64,000 nucleotides of DNA from Bradyrhizobium sp. ORS 285 (GTDB lineage Bacteria; Pseudomonadota; Alphaproteobacteria; Rhizobiales; Xanthobacteraceae), in assembly GCF_900176205.1 (NCBI RefSeq), contig NZ_LT859959.1, positions 5,973,001 through 6,037,000 on the forward strand, read 5' to 3'. The position numbers and the translations under genes are program-made. Of the stretch, positions 2,818-38,480 are shown piece by piece. The first letter of the stretch is position 1. Each line of letters begins with the position of its first letter. The notes below the pieces were generated by a model. It was not told where the DNA came from and made no database searches. It was given only the letters and a program-made list of their open reading frames with translations.

Positions 2818-5800
2818 ATGGCGAAGACCCCCGACACTCCCAAAAAGCCCGGCCGTACACCGAAATCCAAGGCGCACCGTCCGGACGTTCAGCCGATCGC
2901 GCCGGCGCTTGCCGAGTTGCTCAACCCCGCCATCAACCGCGGCGAGAGCGGCATCGGCTCATCAACGGGACTGAAGCCTCCGCCGGACAATTCCTGGGAC
3001 CGGCGCAGCGGCGGCGAGGCGGCAGCGCATCGTGCGCGGGCCTCGACCAAGAGCAAGAGCGAGGACCTCGCGACGCGTGACGGCTCGGAGCGCGCGATGC
3101 CGCTGCGGCCGAATCCGCAGCCGGCCGGCGCGCGTTCGAGCCAAGCCGCCGATGAGAGCGACGAAGCAACGGGCCTCTCCGAAGCGCCGCAGGCCAATTA
3201 CGGCACCGCCGCCACCATCCCCACGCTCGATCCGGAACTGGCGCGGCAGCTCGGCCTGCCCACGGCCGAGGATGACGATGAAGCCCTCGCCCGCCCGCCG
3301 CGCAGCAAGATGGAGGCGCTCGGCGTCAAGGCCACGGCGGAAGCGCTGGAGTCGCTGATCCGCGAGGGGCGTCCTGAGTTCCGCAAGGACGACGGCTCGC
3401 TGCGCGTCTGGACCCCGCATCGCCCGCCGCGCCCGGAAAAGAGCGAAGGCGGCGTCCGCTTCGAGATCAAGTCGGCCTACGAGCCCAAGGGCGACCAGCC
3501 GCAGGCGATCAAGGAGCTGGTCGAGGGCATCGCGCGCAACGACCGCACCCAGGTGCTGCTCGGCGTCACCGGCTCCGGCAAGACCTACACCATGGCCAAG
3601 GTGATCGAGGCGACGCAGCGTCCCGCGATCATCCTCGCGCCGAACAAGACGCTCGCCGCGCAGCTCTATGGCGAGTTCAAGAGCTTCTTCCCGGACAACG
3701 CGGTCGAGTACTTCGTCTCCTATTACGACTACTACCAGCCCGAGGCCTACGTCCCGCGCACCGATACCTATATCGAGAAGGACTCCTCGATCAACGAGCA
3801 GATCGACCGCATGCGCCACGCCGCGACGCGCGCGCTGCTGGAGCGCGACGACGTCATCATCGTCGCCTCGGTGTCCTGCATCTACGGTATCGGCTCGGTC
3901 GAGACCTACACCGCGATGACCTTCGCGCTGAAGAAGGGCGAGCGCATCGACCAGCGCCAGCTGATCGCCGACCTCGTCGCCCTGCAATACAAGCGCACGC
4001 AGCACGATTTCACCCGCGGTACCTTTCGTGTCCGCGGCGACGTCATCGACATCTTCCCGGCGCACTATGAGGACCGCGCCTGGCGCGTGAACCTGTTCGG
4101 CGACACCGTGGAGAACATCGAGGAGTTCGATCCGCTCACCGGCCACAAGCAGGACGAGCTGGAGTTCATCAAGGTCTACGCCAATTCGCACTATGTCACG
4201 CCGCGCCCCACCCTGGTGCAGGCGATGAAGTCGATCAAATCCGAATTGAGGATGCGGCTCGACCAGCTGCACGCGCAAGGCCGCCTGCTCGAGGCGCAGC
4301 GGCTGGAGCAGCGCACCACCTTCGATCTGGAGATGATGGAGGCGACCGGCAGCTGCGCCGGCATCGAGAACTACTCGCGCTATCTCACCGGACGCCTGCC
4401 CGGCGAGCCGCCGCCGACGTTGTTCGAATACGTCCCCGACAACGCGCTGGTTTTCGCCGACGAGAGCCACGTCACCGTGCCGCAGATCGGCGGCATGTTC
4501 CGCGGCGACTTCCGCCGCAAGGCGACGCTGGCCGAATACGGCTTCCGCCTGCCCTCCTGCATGGACAACCGCCCGCTGCGCTTCGAGGAATGGGACATGA
4601 TGCGGCCGCAGACGGTCGCAGTGTCAGCTACTCCTGCGGCCTGGGAGATCAACGAGGCCGGCGGCGTGTTCGTCGAGCAGGTCATCCGTCCGACCGGACT
4701 GATCGACCCGCCCGTTGATATCAGGCCCGCCCGCACCCAGGTCGACGACCTCCTCGGCGAGGTCCGCGCCACAGCGCAGAAGGGCTATCGCTCGCTGATC
4801 ACGGTGCTGACCAAGCGCATGGCCGAGGACCTCACCGAATATCTGCACGAGCAGGGCATCCGCGTCCGCTACATGCACAGTGACATCGACACCATCGAGC
4901 GCATCGAGATCATCCGCGACCTTCGCCTCGGGGCGTTCGACGCGCTGGTCGGCATTAACCTGCTGCGCGAGGGCCTCGACATTCCCGAATGCGCTCTGGT
5001 CGCGATCCTCGACGCCGACAAGGAAGGTTTCCTGCGCAGCGAGACCTCGCTGATCCAGACCATCGGCCGAGCCGCGCGCAACGTCGACGGCAAGGTCATC
5101 CTCTATGCCGACCAGGTCACGGGCTCGATGGAGCGCGCGATGGCCGAGACCACGCGCCGCCGCGAGAAGCAGATGGAGTACAACACGCTCAACGGCATCA
5201 CGCCGGAGAGCGTGAAGAAGTCGATCGGCGACATCCTCAACTCGGTCTATGAGCGCGACCACGTGCTGATCGAAACCGGCGGCGGCACAACCACCGACGA
5301 CGTCATCTCGATCGGCCACAATTTCGAGGCCGTGCTCGCCGACCTCGAAACCCGCATGCGCGAGGCCGCCGCCGACCTGAACTTCGAGGAAGCCGCCCGC
5401 CTCCGCGACGAAGTCAAGCGCCTGCGCGCCACCGAGCTCGCCGTCGTCGACGACCCCACCGCCAAGCAGCGCACCGTGCAGGACAAGGCCGGCTCTTACG
5501 CCGGCGCCAAGAAATACGGCGACGCCGCCAATCTACCGACGGCTGCGATGAAGGGCCGCGGCGACCGCGCGGCCTCTTCACCCTCCCCTGGAGGGGGAGG
5601 GTCGGCCGCCAAGGGCGGCCGGGGTAGGATGAAGCCCCGCGACCCGCTCGCGCCATCGCTCGACGATATCCTCAGCGGCGGCTCAAGCAGCGGCTCCAAG
5701 GTCCACAAGCCCCATCTCGACGAGATGCACGGCCCAGAGTCCCTGCCCTACCGCCCCAACGCCAAGCTGCCGCCCAAACCTTTCGGCAGCAGCAGCAAGA

Positions 5801-32743: not shown

Positions 32744-35164
32744 CTAAGCCACCACACCCAAATTCTTCGCCGCCTGCCAGTTGCGCCAGAAGTCGTGGGG
32801 CATCTGGATGTGCGTCGCGCCCAGGAACGAGAACGCGTCGTTGACCGCGTTCGAGAACGCGGGCACGCCGCCGACATTGGGGCTTTCGCCGACGCCCTTG
32901 GCGCCGATCGGGTGGTGCGGCGACGGGGTCACCGTGTAGTCGGTCTCCCAATGCGGGGTCTCCACCGCAGTCGGCATGAAGAAATCCATGAACGAGCCGG
33001 TGACGACGTTGCCCTCGGCATCGTAGCGGATTTCCTGGCCCATCGCGATGGCGAAGGCCTCGGTGAGGCCGCCATGGACCTGGCCCTCGATGATCATCGG
33101 GTTGATGCGGGTGCCGCAATCGTCGAGCGCGTAGAAGCGCCGGACCTTGTACACGCCGGTGTCGACGTCGATGTCCATCACGCAGAGATAGGCGCCGAAC
33201 GGATAGGTCATGTTGGGCGGATCGTAGTAGCTGACCGCCTCGAGCCCCGGCTCCATGCCCGGGGGCACCGAGTTGTACGCCGCCCAGCAGATGTCCTTCA
33301 TCGACATCGCCTTCTCCGGCAGGCCCTTGACCCGGAAGCGGTCGATGTCCCATTCGAGATCGTCCTCGTGAACCTCGAGCTTGTAGGCCGCAATCATCTG
33401 CGCCTTGGCCTTGATCTTGCGCGCAGCCATCGCGATGGCCGCGCCAGCCACCGGCGTCGAGCGCGAGCCGTAGGTGCCGAGGCCGTAAGGCGCGGTGTCG
33501 GTGTTGCCCTCCTCGACCATGATATTGTCGGCGGGAATGCCGATCTCGCTGGCGATGATCTGCGCCCAGGTGGTCTCGTGCCCCTGGCCCTGGCTCTTGG
33601 TGCCCATCCGCGCGATGCCGGCCCCCGTGGGATGCAGCCGGATCTCGCAGGAATCGAACATCGCGATCCCCAGGATGTCGCAGTTCTTCGACGGGCCGGC
33701 GCCGACGATCTCGGTGAAGAAGGAGATGCCGAGGCCCATGATCTCGCGGGTCTCACCGCGCTTGAACGCCGCGCGCTTCTCCGCCTGCTCCTTGCGAAGA
33801 CCGGCATAGTCGACAGTCTCCATCATCTTGCGCATGGCGGTGTGATAGTCGCCGGAATCGTATTCCCACCCCAAGGCCGAGTGATACGGAAACTGCTCCG
33901 GCTTGACGAAGTTCTTCAGCCGCAGCTCCGCCGGATCCATGCCCAGCTTCTGCGCGAGAATGTCCATCGCGCGCTCGATGCAATAGGCCGCCTCGGTGAC
34001 GCGGAACGAGCAACGATAGGCGACGCCGCCCGGCGCCTTGTTGGTGTAGACGCCGTCGACCACGAGATGCGCGACCGGGAAGTCGTAGGAGCCGGTGACG
34101 ATGTTGAAGAAGCCGGCCGGCCATTTCGACGGATCCGCGCAGGCATCGAAGCCGCCGTGATCGGCGAGCACATGCACGCGCAGGCCGGTGACCTTGCCAT
34201 CCCTGGTCGCGGCGATCTCGGTCGTCATGTGATAGTCGCGCGCGAACGCAGTCGCGGTGAGATTCTCGATGCGGTCCTCGACCCATTTCACCGGCTTGCC
34301 GGTGACGATCGAAGCCACGGCCGCGCAGATGTAGCCGGGATAGGCGCCGACCTTGTTGCCGAAGCCGCCGCCGATATCCGGCGCGATGACGTGGATCTTC
34401 TGCTCAGGGAGCTTGGCGATCAGCGACACCACGGTGCGGATGACGTGCGGCGCCTGGAAGGTGCCCCAGATCGTCAACTCGCCCTTGATCTTGTCGAACG
34501 AACAGACGCACTGGCAGGTCTCGAGCGGCGACGGATGGGTGCGGTGATAGGAGATCATCTCCTTGATCGTCACATCCGCCTTCTTGAACGCCGCATCGGT
34601 CAGCTCCTTGTCGCCGACGCTCCACTCGAAGATGTGGTTGTGGTGCTTGCGCGGGCCGTGCGCGCCTGATGTCTTGCCGGTAAGATCCTCGCGCAGGACA
34701 GGCGCATCCGGGTCCATCGCCTTGAACGGATCGACCAGCACCGGCAGCGGCTCGTAGTCGACGACCACCTTGGAGACGCCGTCATCGGCGGCGTAGCGAT
34801 CGGTGGCGACGACGAAGGCAACCTCCTGGTTCTGGAACAGCACCTTGCCATCGGCGAGCACCATCTGCACGTCGCCGGCCAATGTCGGCATCCAGGCGAG
34901 GTTGACGGTCTTCAAGGTCTCGGCGGTGATCACTGCGAGCACGCCCGGCACCTTCAGGGCGTCCTCGGTGTGGATCGCCTTCACCCGGGCATGGGCATGC
35001 GGCGAGCGCACGAAGTCGCCATGCAGCATGCCCGGCAGCTTGACGTCATCGACGTAGTTGCCCTTGCCTTGGGTGAAGCGGATGTCCTCGACGCGCTTGC
35101 GCCGGCAGCCCATGCCTTCGAGCGCGGCTTCGCGTTGTTCCCGCGTGGGAGTCATGTCGTTCAT
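32744..35164 (-). CDS. coxL: CoxL, molybdenum-copper large subunit of form I CO dehydrogenase
   Basis: The catalytic subunit that oxidises CO to CO2 with water, passing electrons via CoxS and CoxM to the quinone pool. The 806 residues match the A. carboxidovorans subunit (809) closely in length. The active-site loop AYRCSFR is present, with C385 as the copper-binding cysteine; this distinguishes true form I enzymes from form II (AYRGAGR). The catalytic-base glutamate is E760 in [13 protein letters not shown]. The Mo-cofactor segments [20 protein letters not shown] and [16 protein letters not shown] are also intact. The start overlaps the coxS stop by 4 bp. Nothing suggests loss of function. 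Confidence 0.97.
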
Positions 35165-35661
35165 TCCGCGGCCTCCTGGAATTCAACGCCGTTGATCTTG
35201 GCGGCGGCGTATTGGATTGCCTTGACGATGTTCTGATAGCCGGTGCAGCGGCAGATATTGCCGGAGATGCCGGCGCGGATCTCGGCTTCCGTCGGCGACG
35301 GATTCTCCTTCAGCAGCCGATGCGCGCGCAGAATCATTCCGGGCGTGCAGAAGCCGCATTGCAGGCCGTGCATCATGCGAAAGCCTTCCTGCAGCGGCGA
35401 CAAGGTGCCGTCGGCATTGGCCATGCCCTCGATCGTGGTGATCTCGGCACCGTTGGCCTGCACCGCCAGCATGGTGCAGCTCTTCACGCTCATGCCGTCG
35501 ATATCGATAGTGCAGGCGCCGCAATGGCTGGTCTCGCAGCCGATATGCGTGCCGGTGAGCTGCGCCTGCTCGCGCAGGAAGTGGACCAGAAGCGTGCGCG
35601 GCTCCGCGAGGCCCTCGACCTCGCTGCCGTTCACCTTCATCGTGACATGGGTTTTGGGCAT
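35161..35661 (-). CDS. coxS: CoxS, iron-sulfur small subunit of CO dehydrogenase
   Basis: A 166-residue protein carrying two [2Fe-2S] clusters. The plant-ferredoxin-type cluster is bound by [16 protein letters not shown] plus a later Cys (VKSCTM). The C-terminal helical cluster is bound by CGFCTPGM and NICRCTGYQ. It relays electrons from CoxL to the flavin of CoxM. The ATG at 35661 has AGGGAG at good spacing; a longer frame upstream runs into the palindromic repeat and is not real. Translational overlap couples it to coxL. Confidence 0.97.
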
Positions 35662-35879: not shown

Positions 35880-36743
35880 CTAATTGGCCCTGCTCGCCGC
35901 GCGCTGCAGCGCGCGCATCACCATGATGCCGCCGACATGCACGCGATACTCGGCCGGCCCCCGCGCATCGGACGCCGGCTGCATGATCGCGCGCGCCGCC
36001 GTTGCCGCGGCCTTCAGCGCCGCCTCGTCCAGCGTGGTCCCGATCACCGCCTTCGCCGCGTCGGTCGCCAACAGCGGCGTCTCATGCAGGTTGGTCAGCG
36101 AAATCACGCAGCTCGCCACCTTGCCGCCGGCCATCGTCAGCACGACGCCCGCCGCCGCGGTCGCATAATCGCCCACCTTGCGCTTCAGCTTCTCATAGGC
36201 GTAGCCGTGACCCGCGGGCGGCACGGGAATGGTGACTCCCGTCAGGATCTCGCCAGGCTCCAGCGCCGTGAAATACGCCCCCTGGTAAAACTCCCGCGCC
36301 GCGACCTCGCGGGCGCCGTTCGGTCCCTCCAGCCGATAACTCGCATCCAGCGCCAGCATCAGCGCCGGCATGTCGTTGCCGGGATCGCCATTGGCGACAT
36401 TGCCGCCCAGCGTGCCGCGATAGCGCACCTGCGGATCGGCAATCAGCAGCGCCGCCTCGTGCAGGATCGGCAACGCCTCACCGATCTCCTTGGAGGCCAA
36501 AAGCTCTGCCTGCGTCGTCATCGCACCGATCGCGATGCGGTCGCCGTCGCGGCAGATGCCCTTGAGGCCGGCGATGCCGTGCAGGTCGATCAGATGCGCC
36601 GGCGTCGCCAACCGCAGCTTCATCATCGGCAGCAGGCTGTGGCCGCCAGCGAGCGGACGCGCGTCGTCACCGAGATCGGCGAGCAGCTTGATCGCATCGC
36701 CGACACTCGCGGGCCGGTGATAGTCGAACGGGCCTGGAATCAT
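35880..36743 (-). CDS. coxM: CoxM, FAD-binding medium subunit of CO dehydrogenase
   Basis: A 287-residue flavoprotein of the xanthine-oxidase FAD family. FAD contacts are AGGHSLLPMMKLRLA and the signature TLGGNVANGDPGNDMPAL (about residues 100-118). The CO-dehydrogenase C-terminal domain follows (about 170-280). It hands electrons to quinone. The ATG at 36743 follows an excellent AGGAGGGAA ribosome site. It is the first structural gene of the operon; the likely regulator coxC lies upstream on the same strand, with a candidate LytTR site between them. Confidence 0.97.
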   Translation of the reverse strand: MIPGPFDYHRPASVGDAIKLLADLGDDARPLAGGHSLLPMMKLRLATPAHLIDLHGIAGLKGICRDGDRIAIGAMTTQAELLASKEIGEALPILHEAALLIADPQVRYRGTLGGNVANGDPGNDMPALMLALDASYRLEGPNGAREVAAREFYQGAYFTALEPGEILTGVTIPVPPAGHGYAYEKLKRKVGDYATAAAGVVLTMAGGKVASCVISLTNLHETPLLATDAAKAVIGTTLDEAALKAAATAARAIMQPASDARGPAEYRVHVGGIMVMRALQRAASRAN

Positions 36744-36911
36744 GGCGTTCCCTCCTGGACTGGCTTGCCTTGACGGCTAGGCCTTGCGCGGATGCAGTGG
36801 GCGTTCATGCTGCGAGAGCGAAAGCGAACGCGGGCGCATTGCGCTGTTGGCGGGAAGTTCGATCCTGATTGGCGGATCGCGCAACGAAGCCGGCACGGAG
36901 AGCGATGAATT

Positions 36912-36945
36912 CGCACGAGTTGCGGATCAGCGCGCACGAATTGCG
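36912..36945. promoter_or_regulatory. candidate LytTR (CoxC) binding site: two direct repeats 21 bp apart
   Basis: CGCACGAGTTGCG (36912-36924) and CGCACGAATTGCG (36933-36945) differ at one base and start exactly 21 bp apart, two helical turns. LytTR-domain regulators bind paired direct repeats with this spacing. A weaker GCACGGAGAGCG at 36893-36904 may be a third half-site. The site is 169 bp upstream of coxM, and coxC is the nearest LytTR gene. Confidence 0.6.
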
Positions 36946-37040
36946 ACAGCGACGCCGACCTAATTATGCGCGCCGCGAGGCCGATCCGATCGGCAGGACC
37001 CAAACTCGCTGAACCAAGCTTGAGTTCAGATTCCTCCTCG

Positions 37041-37128
37041 CCGTCATGGCCGGGCTTGTCCCGGCCATCCACGTCGTTCGGCGTGCTGGGAAAGACGTGG
37101 ATGCCCGGGACAAGCCCGGGCATGACGG
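37041..37128. repeat. 88-bp inverted repeat, family F
   Basis: Arms CCGTCATGGCCGGG (37041-37054) and CCCGGGCATGACGG (37115-37128), extended by CTTGTCCCGG...GACGTGG complementarity. One near-continuous hairpin. It sits just after the coxC stop and may end that transcript. Confidence 0.75.
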
Positions 37129-37247
37129 AGCAACTAACCCGCAGGATCGCTCGTCGCGACGGCCTGCATCTCGCTATACGAGAGTCCTGATGCGAACGCG
37201 TGCGATGCAGAAAGATCTGCGCGTCGTATTTGCAGTTGCGAACAGAT

Positions 37248-38480
37248 TTAGGCCGGCCGCCGCAGCCCGAGCCGCGCCTTGACTTCGGCGACCTTGGCGC
37301 GGCTCACCGGCACGCGCGGCTTGGACGGGCCGTCCAGCTCGATGATCGCGCCCTCGCCTTCCTTGCCGACGAAGGTCACGTGCTCGATCGCGACGATGTG
37401 ACTCCGATGCACGCGGATGAAGCGGCCGGGATCGAGCTGGGCCTCGGCCTCGGAGATCGACCACGGGCACATCCGCTCGCGGGTGCCGTCGTGCACTCGG
37501 GTGTAGTGCGCGTCGGCGCGGACGCTGCGGACATCGCCGGCGTCGATAAAGTGGGTGCCATTGGCGCCTTCGAGCGGCAGCCGCACGGCTGCGATGCGTG
37601 GCGGCTGGCCGATGCCGCCGAGCGGCGCGGCGGTGATGCGGGTGGACGCGATGGTCTCGACGGGTTCTGCAGGCGACGGCGCAGCGGATTGCGCTGGCGG
37701 CGGCATGGCCGGCTCAGGCGCCAGTTCAGGGGCGGGCTCGGCCAACACCGTTGCCGGCTGCGACGCGCGATGCGGCTCCGGCACCAGTGACAGCAGGAAG
37801 CCTGCGGCGACGACAAAACACAGCACGGCGACCACGATCGCCAGCGCCTGCGGTGATGCCGCAAGCCCCGCGGCCTGATGATGGTGGCCCTCGCCGGCCG
37901 GCACCACATGCATGCCCAGCATCGCCGTATAATGCATGCCTGACACGGCAATGCCGAAGGCGAGCGCGCTGATGGCAAGCCGCAAGCCATCCTGCCGCGC
38001 CAGGAAGATGCGCAAGCCTCCGTAGGCGGCAACGATCGCAATCGCGACCGACAGCGCCACCAGCGCCGGGTCATGCGTCAGTCCAAAGCTTCCGGCGAGC
38101 CCGTGCATCCCGACATAATGCATGCTGGCGATGCCGGCGCCGAGCAGCAGCGCCGAGGGAATGACGCGCTTGGCCGAGGGATCACCGATGCTGACGAAGA
38201 ACAGCGAGATGCCGACGACGAGCGCGCAGATCAGGAAGGAGATGATGGTCGGCAGCACCAGATAGACGGCATCGGTGGGCATGGGCGCGGCCATCATGCC
38301 CACGAAATGCATCGTCCAGATGCCCACCGCCAGGATCGCCGCCGCGCCGGACAGCAGCACGCGCGGATTCGCTCCCGGCCCGCTGCGGATGCGCGCCGTC
38401 AGACTGAATCCGGTATAGCCACCCAGGCTCGCGATCACGACCGAGAGCGCGACGAGATAAGGATCGTATCCTTCGATCAT
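37248..38480 (-). CDS. coxC: CoxC-like MHYT-domain sensor with LytTR DNA-binding domain
   Basis: A 410-residue membrane-bound one-component regulator. The N-terminal about 240 residues are a seven-helix MHYT domain with the repeated motif MHFVGM, MHYVGMH and MHYTAML; the His/Met pairs are thought to bind a metal (copper) and sense a diatomic gas such as CO or O2. A Pro/Ala-rich linker (about 245-290) leads to a C-terminal LytTR domain (about 305-405: AHYTRVHDGTRERMCPWSIS, RFIRVHRSHIVAIEHVTFVG). CoxC and CoxH of A. carboxidovorans have this architecture. The ATG at 38480 starts the conserved YDPYLVALSVVIA. It lies directly upstream of coxM, hence the name; binding to DNA is inferred. Confidence 0.85.
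   Translation of the reverse strand: MIEGYDPYLVALSVVIASLGGYTGFSLTARIRSGPGANPRVLLSGAAAILAVGIWTMHFVGMMAAPMPTDAVYLVLPTIISFLICALVVGISLFFVSIGDPSAKRVIPSALLLGAGIASMHYVGMHGLAGSFGLTHDPALVALSVAIAIVAAYGGLRIFLARQDGLRLAISALAFGIAVSGMHYTAMLGMHVVPAGEGHHHQAAGLAASPQALAIVVAVLCFVVAAGFLLSLVPEPHRASQPATVLAEPAPELAPEPAMPPPAQSAAPSPAEPVETIASTRITAAPLGGIGQPPRIAAVRLPLEGANGTHFIDAGDVRSVRADAHYTRVHDGTRERMCPWSISEAEAQLDPGRFIRVHRSHIVAIEHVTFVGKEGEGAIIELDGPSKPRVPVSRAKVAEVKARLGLRRPA

What the first reader, a model, noticed from the sequence alone, without database searches (positions are those of the whole stretch)
36912..36945. Candidate CoxC operator: 13-bp direct repeats exactly two helical turns apart upstream of the CO dehydrogenase genes
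CGCACGAGTTGCG and CGCACGAATTGCG start 21 bp apart in the coxC-coxM gap. LytTR-domain proteins bind paired direct repeats at about 21-22 bp spacing, and coxC just upstream encodes an MHYT membrane sensor with a LytTR domain. If correct, a membrane sensor would bind DNA directly to switch on CO oxidation, with no two-component relay. I know of no defined operator for a CoxC-type protein.
Basis: partly seen in the sequence, partly recalled or inferred. Interest (0 to 1): 0.7.

Follow-up and report, generated by a model that had tools for sequence, protein, structure and literature searches.

The report
Conserved CoxC operator before CO-dehydrogenase genes
The short DNA repeats in front of the carbon-monoxide-oxidation genes are part of a three-repeat landing site, very probably for the neighbouring gas-sensing protein CoxC, and the same site sits at a fixed distance from the likely promoter of these genes in many related soil bacteria.

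Summary
In detail: two 13-mers, 21 bp apart, at 36912-36924 and 36933-36945. They are two thirds of a three-repeat site. On the coding (minus) strand it reads TTCGTGCG, CTCGTGCG, TCCGTGCC, starts 21 and 20 bp apart. The triplet occurs in 124 of 124 distinct coxC-coxM gaps scored, against 2 of 1240 shuffles and 0 of 124 control stretches. It stays with coxM where 1.5-3.7 kb separate it from coxC. Three coxM loci in genomes without an MHYT-LytTR protein lack it.

It is very probably the CoxC operator of the coxMSL promoter. 'No defined CoxC operator' is out of date: Afipia carboxidovorans PcoxB was published in 2024, with CoxC as a CO-relieved repressor (PMC11347149).

New here: the coxM site is the conserved one; a model of it recovers PcoxB in another register than the published one; a TTG (-35-like) stands at one of two distances from the third repeat, 11-12 bp apart, in 124 of 124 loci, followed by a -10-like nAnnnT in 119 of 124. 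The operator lies upstream of that -35, a layout more usual for activators. Binding and sign of regulation are untested.

The parts
37248..38480 (-). coxC: MHYT membrane sensor fused to a LytTR DNA-binding domain (start codon taken at 38480; stop codon 37250-37248)
   Evidence: Pfam MHYT 8.3e-35 (3 stretches), LytTR 2.1e-16; 38% identity to A. carboxidovorans CoxC, 65% to a Shinella plasmid CoxC
36933..36945 (-). Operator repeat R1, CGCAA+TTCGTGCG (core 36940-36933)
   Evidence: each of the first six core bases TTCGTG is kept in at least 121 of 124 orthologous gaps
36912..36924 (-). Operator repeat R2, CGCAA+CTCGTGCG (core 36919-36912), 21 bp after R1
   Evidence: each base of GTG kept in at least 123 of 124; first core base T in 91, C in 32, G in 1 of 124
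36892..36899 (-). Operator repeat R3, TCCGTGCC, 20 bp after R2; not in the finding
   Evidence: each base of GTG kept in at least 123 of 124; no conserved CGCA before it
36879..36884 (-). Inferred -35 element TTGCGC, starting 15 bp after the start of R3
   Evidence: TTG at 15 bp (83) or 26-27 bp (41) from the R3 start in 124 of 124 loci
36855..36860 (-). Inferred -10 element GAACTT, 18-bp spacer here
   Evidence: nAnnnT at a 17- or 18-bp spacer in 119 of 124 loci against 1-5 of 124 at six shifted positions; the generic sigma-70 scan found nothing
36847..36848 (-). Predicted transcription start of coxMSL (about 105 nt before the coxM ATG)
   Evidence: inference from the -10 position and a commonly kept A at +36 of the TTG; not mapped experimentally
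35880..36743 (-). coxM, FAD subunit of CO dehydrogenase, first gene of coxMSL
   Evidence: FAD_binding_5 and CO_deh_flav_C
32744..35658 (-). coxS and coxL (AYRCSFR visible in the CoxL translation; that this marks form I CO dehydrogenase is recalled)
   Evidence: Pfam Fer2_2 and MoCoBD domains; translation

Best explanation
The repeats are two of three direct repeats that form the operator of the membrane-bound CO sensor CoxC, directly upstream of the promoter of coxMSL. CoxC's cytoplasmic LytTR domains bind the three phased repeats (21 and 19-20 bp apart) beside the -35 box, and CO sensed by the MHYT domain changes that binding and so coxMSL transcription. By the only experimental precedent (A. 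carboxidovorans PcoxB), CoxC bound without CO holds the promoter down and CO releases it. Shown here: sequence, spacing, conservation, association with a CoxC gene, and a conserved -35/-10-like pair at fixed distance. Inferred: binding by this CoxC, the transcription start, and repression with CO release at this promoter.
For: Triplet in 124 of 124 distinct coxC-coxM gaps, 2 of 1240 shuffles, 0 of 124 control stretches. In three loci where about 1.5, 2.4 and 3.7 kb separate coxC from coxM (G171, G167, G025) the triplet stays 136-195 bp before coxM. In 43 coxM loci from an order-wide search, outside the genus, 35 of 37 with a CoxC/LytTR gene upstream exceed the 99th percentile of the null and 24 exceed its maximum. 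Of 6 without one in the fetched stretch, the 3 whose R1-R2 pair score exceeds the null's 99th percentile have a CoxC-like protein elsewhere in the genome; the other 3 have none with both MHYT and LytTR. A matrix trained without A. carboxidovorans and its near relative scores two positive sites in about 21.5 kb of that species' cox region: PcoxB, bound by CoxC in published EMSA, and the coxC-coxM gap (16.4 and 15.3; next best -11.3). The repeats resemble the published TTNNNGCN and RcoM1 TTCNNGCA motifs.
Against: No binding or expression data for this protein or DNA. CoxC here is only 38% identical to the tested one. Two loci with CoxC upstream lack a detectable site (L237, L251). In 13 of 37 order-wide loci the score lies within the range of the null. 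The published PcoxB operator is said to overlap the -35 box, whereas here it lies upstream, which fits repression less well. Most of the 124 gaps come from one genus, so they are not independent cases.
Confidence: 0.87

Rival explanations
1. Same operator, opposite sign: at coxM, CoxC is an activator (or has both roles) that touches RNA polymerase from a phase-locked position upstream of the -35, as RcoM1 and AgrA do, and CO promotes rather than relieves its action.
For: All three repeats lie upstream of the conserved TTG. Each of 124 loci has a TTG at exactly one of two distances from R3 start, 15 or 26-27 bp, with at least 8 switches on a fast CoxC tree, 3 of them forced by well-supported branches. 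AgrA activates from direct repeats upstream of its promoters and represses bsaA from a site downstream of that promoter (PMC4227749 passages). The CoxC paper notes that RcoM1 and most LytTR regulators bind upstream of -35 and activate.
Against: The only tested CoxC represses PcoxB in E. coli and is released by CO (PMC11347149); on my register PcoxB has the same layout, so the layout alone does not exclude repression. R3 would also lie inside a usual polymerase footprint (recalled). The -35 is itself inferred.
Confidence: 0.3
2. The repeats bind another regulator, not CoxC.
For: R1 and R2 are also imperfect palindromes (CGCA...TGCG), and no binding was measured.
Against: Presence follows CoxC across the genomes tested, with two exceptions; the motif model picks out the CoxC-bound PcoxB; triple phased direct repeats are the RcoM1/CoxC pattern.
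Confidence: 0.06
3. Chance similarity, or plain descent of a non-coding gap.
For: Many of the sequences are close relatives.
Against: The gap varies from 127 to 1501 bp among the loci scored while the triplet, its spacing and its distance to TTG stay nearly fixed; the triplet is also found in Shinella, Ciceribacter, Mesorhizobium, Aminobacter and Rhizobium and, more loosely, in other families of the order.
Confidence: 0.01

Closest known systems
CoxC operator at PcoxB of Afipia carboxidovorans OM5 (Durante-Rodriguez et al. 2024, PMC11347149)
   Same: MHYT-LytTR regulator of aerobic CO dehydrogenase genes; three direct repeats of the TTNNNGC type; upstream of cox genes
   Different: Site lies before coxM, not coxB; core TTCGTGCG; starts 21/20 apart (the published motifs lie 29 and 26 bp apart start to start, by my reading of the printed primers and the plasmid record); operator upstream of, not overlapping, the inferred -35; protein 38% identical
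RcoM1 operator of Paraburkholderia xenovorans (as described in PMC11347149)
   Same: Triplet of TTCNNGCA-like repeats with 12-13 bp spacers, LytTR domain, CO control of cox genes, placed upstream of -35
   Different: RcoM1 is a haem sensor and activator; here the regulator is a membrane MHYT protein
AgrA and other LytTR paired-repeat sites (PMC4227749)
   Same: Direct repeats recognised by LytTR domains, upstream of the promoter
   Different: AgrA binds as a dimer to two repeats and is a two-component response regulator (the latter recalled); here one-component and three repeats

Membership tests
CoxC operator (as published for PcoxB) | Controls cox genes beside a gene for an MHYT-LytTR protein | tested here: met
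   Position and neighbours only; control itself not tested
CoxC operator (as published for PcoxB) | Three direct repeats TTNNNGCN | tested here: inconclusive
   R1 fits; R2 and R3 in the window each have C for one T; R2 begins with T in 91 of 124 gaps
CoxC operator (as published for PcoxB) | Repeat spacing as published | tested here: not met
   Here 21/20 start to start; the published motifs lie 29/26 apart, but a re-registered PcoxB triplet has 21/20
CoxC operator (as published for PcoxB) | Overlaps the -35 box | tested here: not met
   R3 ends 7 bp before the inferred -35; the -35 is inferred
CoxC operator (as published for PcoxB) | Bound by the LytTR domain; CO relieves repression | not testable with these tools
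   needs EMSA and reporter assays
RcoM1-type triplet operator | Three TTCNNGCA-like repeats with 12-13 bp spacers | tested here: met
   Cores with 13 and 12 bp spacers in the window (13 and 11 in 108 of 124 relatives); R2 and R3 deviate by one base from TT
RcoM1-type triplet operator | Regulator is a haem RcoM protein | tested here: not met
   Neighbour is MHYT-LytTR
Canonical LytTR paired site | Direct repeats about two turns apart | tested here: met
   R1-R2 21 bp in 120 of 124, 20 bp in 4 of 124

The most novel reading that the evidence does not exclude
The coxM site, not PcoxB, is the ancestral and main CoxC operator of alphaproteobacterial CO oxidation. CoxC acts there from a helical-phase-locked position upstream of the -35 as a CO-dependent activator or dual regulator. 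The published PcoxB operator is misregistered: its real triplet is TTCATGCG/TTGGTGGA/TTTGGGCA, and the published 'repeat III' is a -35-like element.
Probability: 0.3. Interest if true: 0.72.

Novelty: new member of a known kind. Interest (0 to 1): 0.52.

Why it matters
It gives a testable operator and promoter model for aerobic CO dehydrogenase in a widespread group of soil and plant-associated bacteria. It ties a membrane gas sensor to its probable main target with no relay. It makes the question whether CoxC represses or activates directly testable, and suggests the one published CoxC operator should be re-mapped.

Tried and rejected
A pair-only reading was rejected: R3 is as constant as R1 and R2 in its GTG core. 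A coxC 3'-end function was rejected: the repeats stay with coxM in the displaced loci. Autoregulation of coxC by the same kind of site was not seen: 0 of 124 upstream stretches reach 16. Other targets in the genome: none found by these patterns. The first triplet pattern, with R2-R3 spacing 19, found nothing because this clade has 20. The generic sigma-70 scan found no promoter in 36700-37300; the inferred -35/-10 rests on conservation alone. In a class-wide blind pattern search 15 of 385 genomes matched (20 places, several of them tandem repeats); only the window's own and G311 show coxC or coxM in the fetched flanks, and the reversed control pattern matched in 4 genomes, so the pattern alone is not specific. 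A PDB sequence search with the LytTR part gave nothing. No structure was predicted. TSS tables of Bradyrhizobium dRNA-seq could not be opened (supplement look-ups are capped at 0); the main text of PMC4842269 has no 'coxM', 'coxL' or 'carbon monoxide'.

Rows dropped: 180 loci (several of them copies of one place) were reduced to 130 distinct ones by the last 200 nt of coxC; 6 of these had no coxM within 1600 nt and were left out of the 124. Of the 6: L129 (G167) and L019 (G025, seen in L099) have the triplet by a displaced coxM; L035 and L102 have the triplet but no coxM found in the fetched DNA; L153 and L158 have neither in the 1338 and 514 nt held after coxC. Four listed genus hits that are partial (G098, G229, G205, G155) were not fetched. 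In the order-wide coxM test the three same-genus genomes and one weak second match (G661:C67, 38%) were not used.

Full report
What is there. The cox genes run on the minus strand: coxC (MHYT-LytTR), a 504-bp gap, then coxM, coxS, coxL. Read on that strand the site is CGCAA-TTCGTGCG, CGCAA-CTCGTGCG, TCCGTGCC: three repeats with cores at 36940-36933, 36919-36912 and 36899-36892, starts 21 and 20 bp apart.

Conservation. A CoxC search of 242 genomes of the genus found some match in 226; many of the listed matches cover only the MHYT part, and about 90 genomes have a close CoxC relative. I read the stretch after coxC in the 30 loci returned by that search, 60 further loci fetched by place, four plasmid records and 80 named loci from one scan of GTDB species genomes, which kept the best 80 of 571. 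After removing copies 130 distinct coxC loci remained, 124 with coxM within 1600 nt. All 124 have the triplet (score at least 16 of 21); 1240 dinucleotide shuffles gave 2; 124 equal stretches upstream of coxC gave 0. Spacing was 21/19 in 108, 21/20 in 12, 20/20 in 3, 20/19 in 1. The T and the last G of the GTG core are invariant in all three repeats (124 of 124), and the first G is kept in at least 121 of 124. CGCA precedes R1 and R2 but not R3. Named carriers include Bradyrhizobium, Mesorhizobium, Aminobacter, Ciceribacter, Shinella, Rhizobium and A. carboxidovorans itself. Many of the 124 are close relatives, mostly of one genus, so the count is not one of independent events.

Natural experiments. 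Where about 1.5 kb (G171), 2.4 kb (G167) or 3.7 kb (G025) separate coxC from coxM, the triplet is 136, 137 and about 195 bp before coxM, not behind coxC. Two Sinorhizobium meliloti plasmid records carry coxC followed by the full triplet, with no coxM in the 13.2 and 11.2 kb fetched. An order-wide search of 297 genomes found coxM in 46; I read 43 loci outside the genus. Of 37 with a CoxC or LytTR gene upstream, 35 exceed the null's 99th percentile and 24 its maximum; the two that fail are L237 and L251, and the sites outside Bradyrhizobium are often looser, above all in R3. Of 6 without such a gene in the fetched stretch, G785, G665 and G870 have R1-R2 pair scores of 8.9, 17.9 and 4.6 (null 99th percentile -2.9, maximum 7.6) and carry CoxC-like proteins elsewhere; in G870 the MHYT and LytTR parts lie in adjacent stretches, with one TGA noted. 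G703, G664 and G887 score -17.1, -17.1 and -18.8; the first two have only an MHYT stretch in a frame of 808-809 aa, the third no match. On the stricter three-repeat score only G665 of the six exceeds the 99th percentile. Numbers are small.

Link to experiment. Full-text search found one paper with both CoxC and MHYT. I saw its abstract, passages, the plasmid-construction section and the first of two parts of the discussion. It reports that the LytTR domain of A. carboxidovorans CoxC binds PcoxB, that CoxC represses PcoxB in E. coli, and that CO, with copper, relieves this. In what I saw it does not describe a site in the coxC-coxM gap; 'coxM' occurs twice in the text, both times within 'coxMSL' in the introduction. 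A scoring matrix trained on my set without the A. carboxidovorans and B. betae rows gives two positive sites in about 21.5 kb of the OM5 cox region, both strands: 16.4 at PcoxB and 15.3 in the coxC-coxM gap; the next best is -11.3. The 124 rows, rescored, have a median of 59.7 and a minimum of 15.3, the OM5 gap itself. At PcoxB the matrix picks CCGCAG-TTCATGCG, TTGGTGGA, TTTGGGCA, starts 21/20 apart, of which only the last is a published repeat. On the simple scale this register scores 16 of 21, while the three published motifs score 4, 5 and 4. Published repeat I overlaps the CCGC flank of my R2, and its published mutation also changes the G of that flank (G in 121 of 124 gaps). Published repeat III (TTGCGGCA) begins 26 bp after my R3, the place of the TTG in my second group; another TTG stands at 15 bp. 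This is a reinterpretation that fits the published data, not a refutation.

Promoter. Each of 124 loci has a TTG 15 bp (83 loci) or 26-27 bp (41 loci) after the start of R3. I saw these positions in the data and then tallied them; in the full histogram no other offset holds more than 8 loci, apart from offset 1, which lies inside R3, and the 11 TTGs at 17-22 bp are extra ones in loci that also have one at 15 or 26-27. From that TTG, nAnnnT follows at a 17-bp spacer in 110 and at 18 bp only in 9 more; 5 have neither. Frames shifted by 3, 6 or 9 bp either way give 1-5 of 124. A fast tree of CoxC needs at least 8 switches between the two distances, 3 of them forced by well-supported branches. A jump of 11-12 bp is about one helical turn, as a face-of-helix requirement would give. 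In the window: -35 TTGCGC 36884-36879, -10 GAACTT 36860-36855, predicted start near 36848, 105 nt before the coxM ATG. A generic promoter scan does not see it.

How it probably works. LytTR domains of membrane CoxC bind the phased repeats next to the -35; CO at the MHYT domain changes the state. Precedent favours repression relieved by CO; the layout (operator upstream of -35, phase-locked) is that of LytTR activators such as RcoM1 and AgrA. I give repression about 0.6 and activation or dual action about 0.3.

Novelty. The kind of site is known (RcoM1, PcoxB). I found no description of the coxM site, its conservation, the promoter geometry or the PcoxB re-registration in my searches (open-licence papers only, most seen as listings).

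Noticed in passing
window 37036-37130: A dispersed palindromic element lies between coxC and the operator; the search of the own genome lists 81 matches counting both strands (78-100% identity). Among the eight close Bradyrhizobium gaps printed it is otherwise seen only in part, in G065 (L006).
   Followed up: partly
L035 7258-7310 and L276 6257-6310: Sinorhizobium meliloti plasmids carry a 57%-identical CoxC followed by a full triplet but no coxM in the DNA fetched; in L035 an EAL-domain gene follows. Scar or rewired target.
   Followed up: partly
L033 about 3819-4235: The published PcoxB operator region of A. carboxidovorans overlaps the end of an open frame that looks like a DnaE2-type polymerase remnant (by eye from the translation, not tested).
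   Followed up: no
L098 2725-3925: The gene in CoxH's place in A. carboxidovorans OM5 is annotated as two overlapping MHYT proteins, as if frame-shifted in this record.
   Followed up: no
L034, L093, L094: Bradyrhizobium plasmids or contigs carry an Afipia-like cox cluster (CoxC about 39% identical to the window's) with its own triplet before coxM.
   Followed up: partly
window 36912-36945: R1 and R2 are each imperfect palindromes (CGCA...TGCG); R3 is not. Whether the CGCA half is contacted by the protein is unknown.
   Followed up: no
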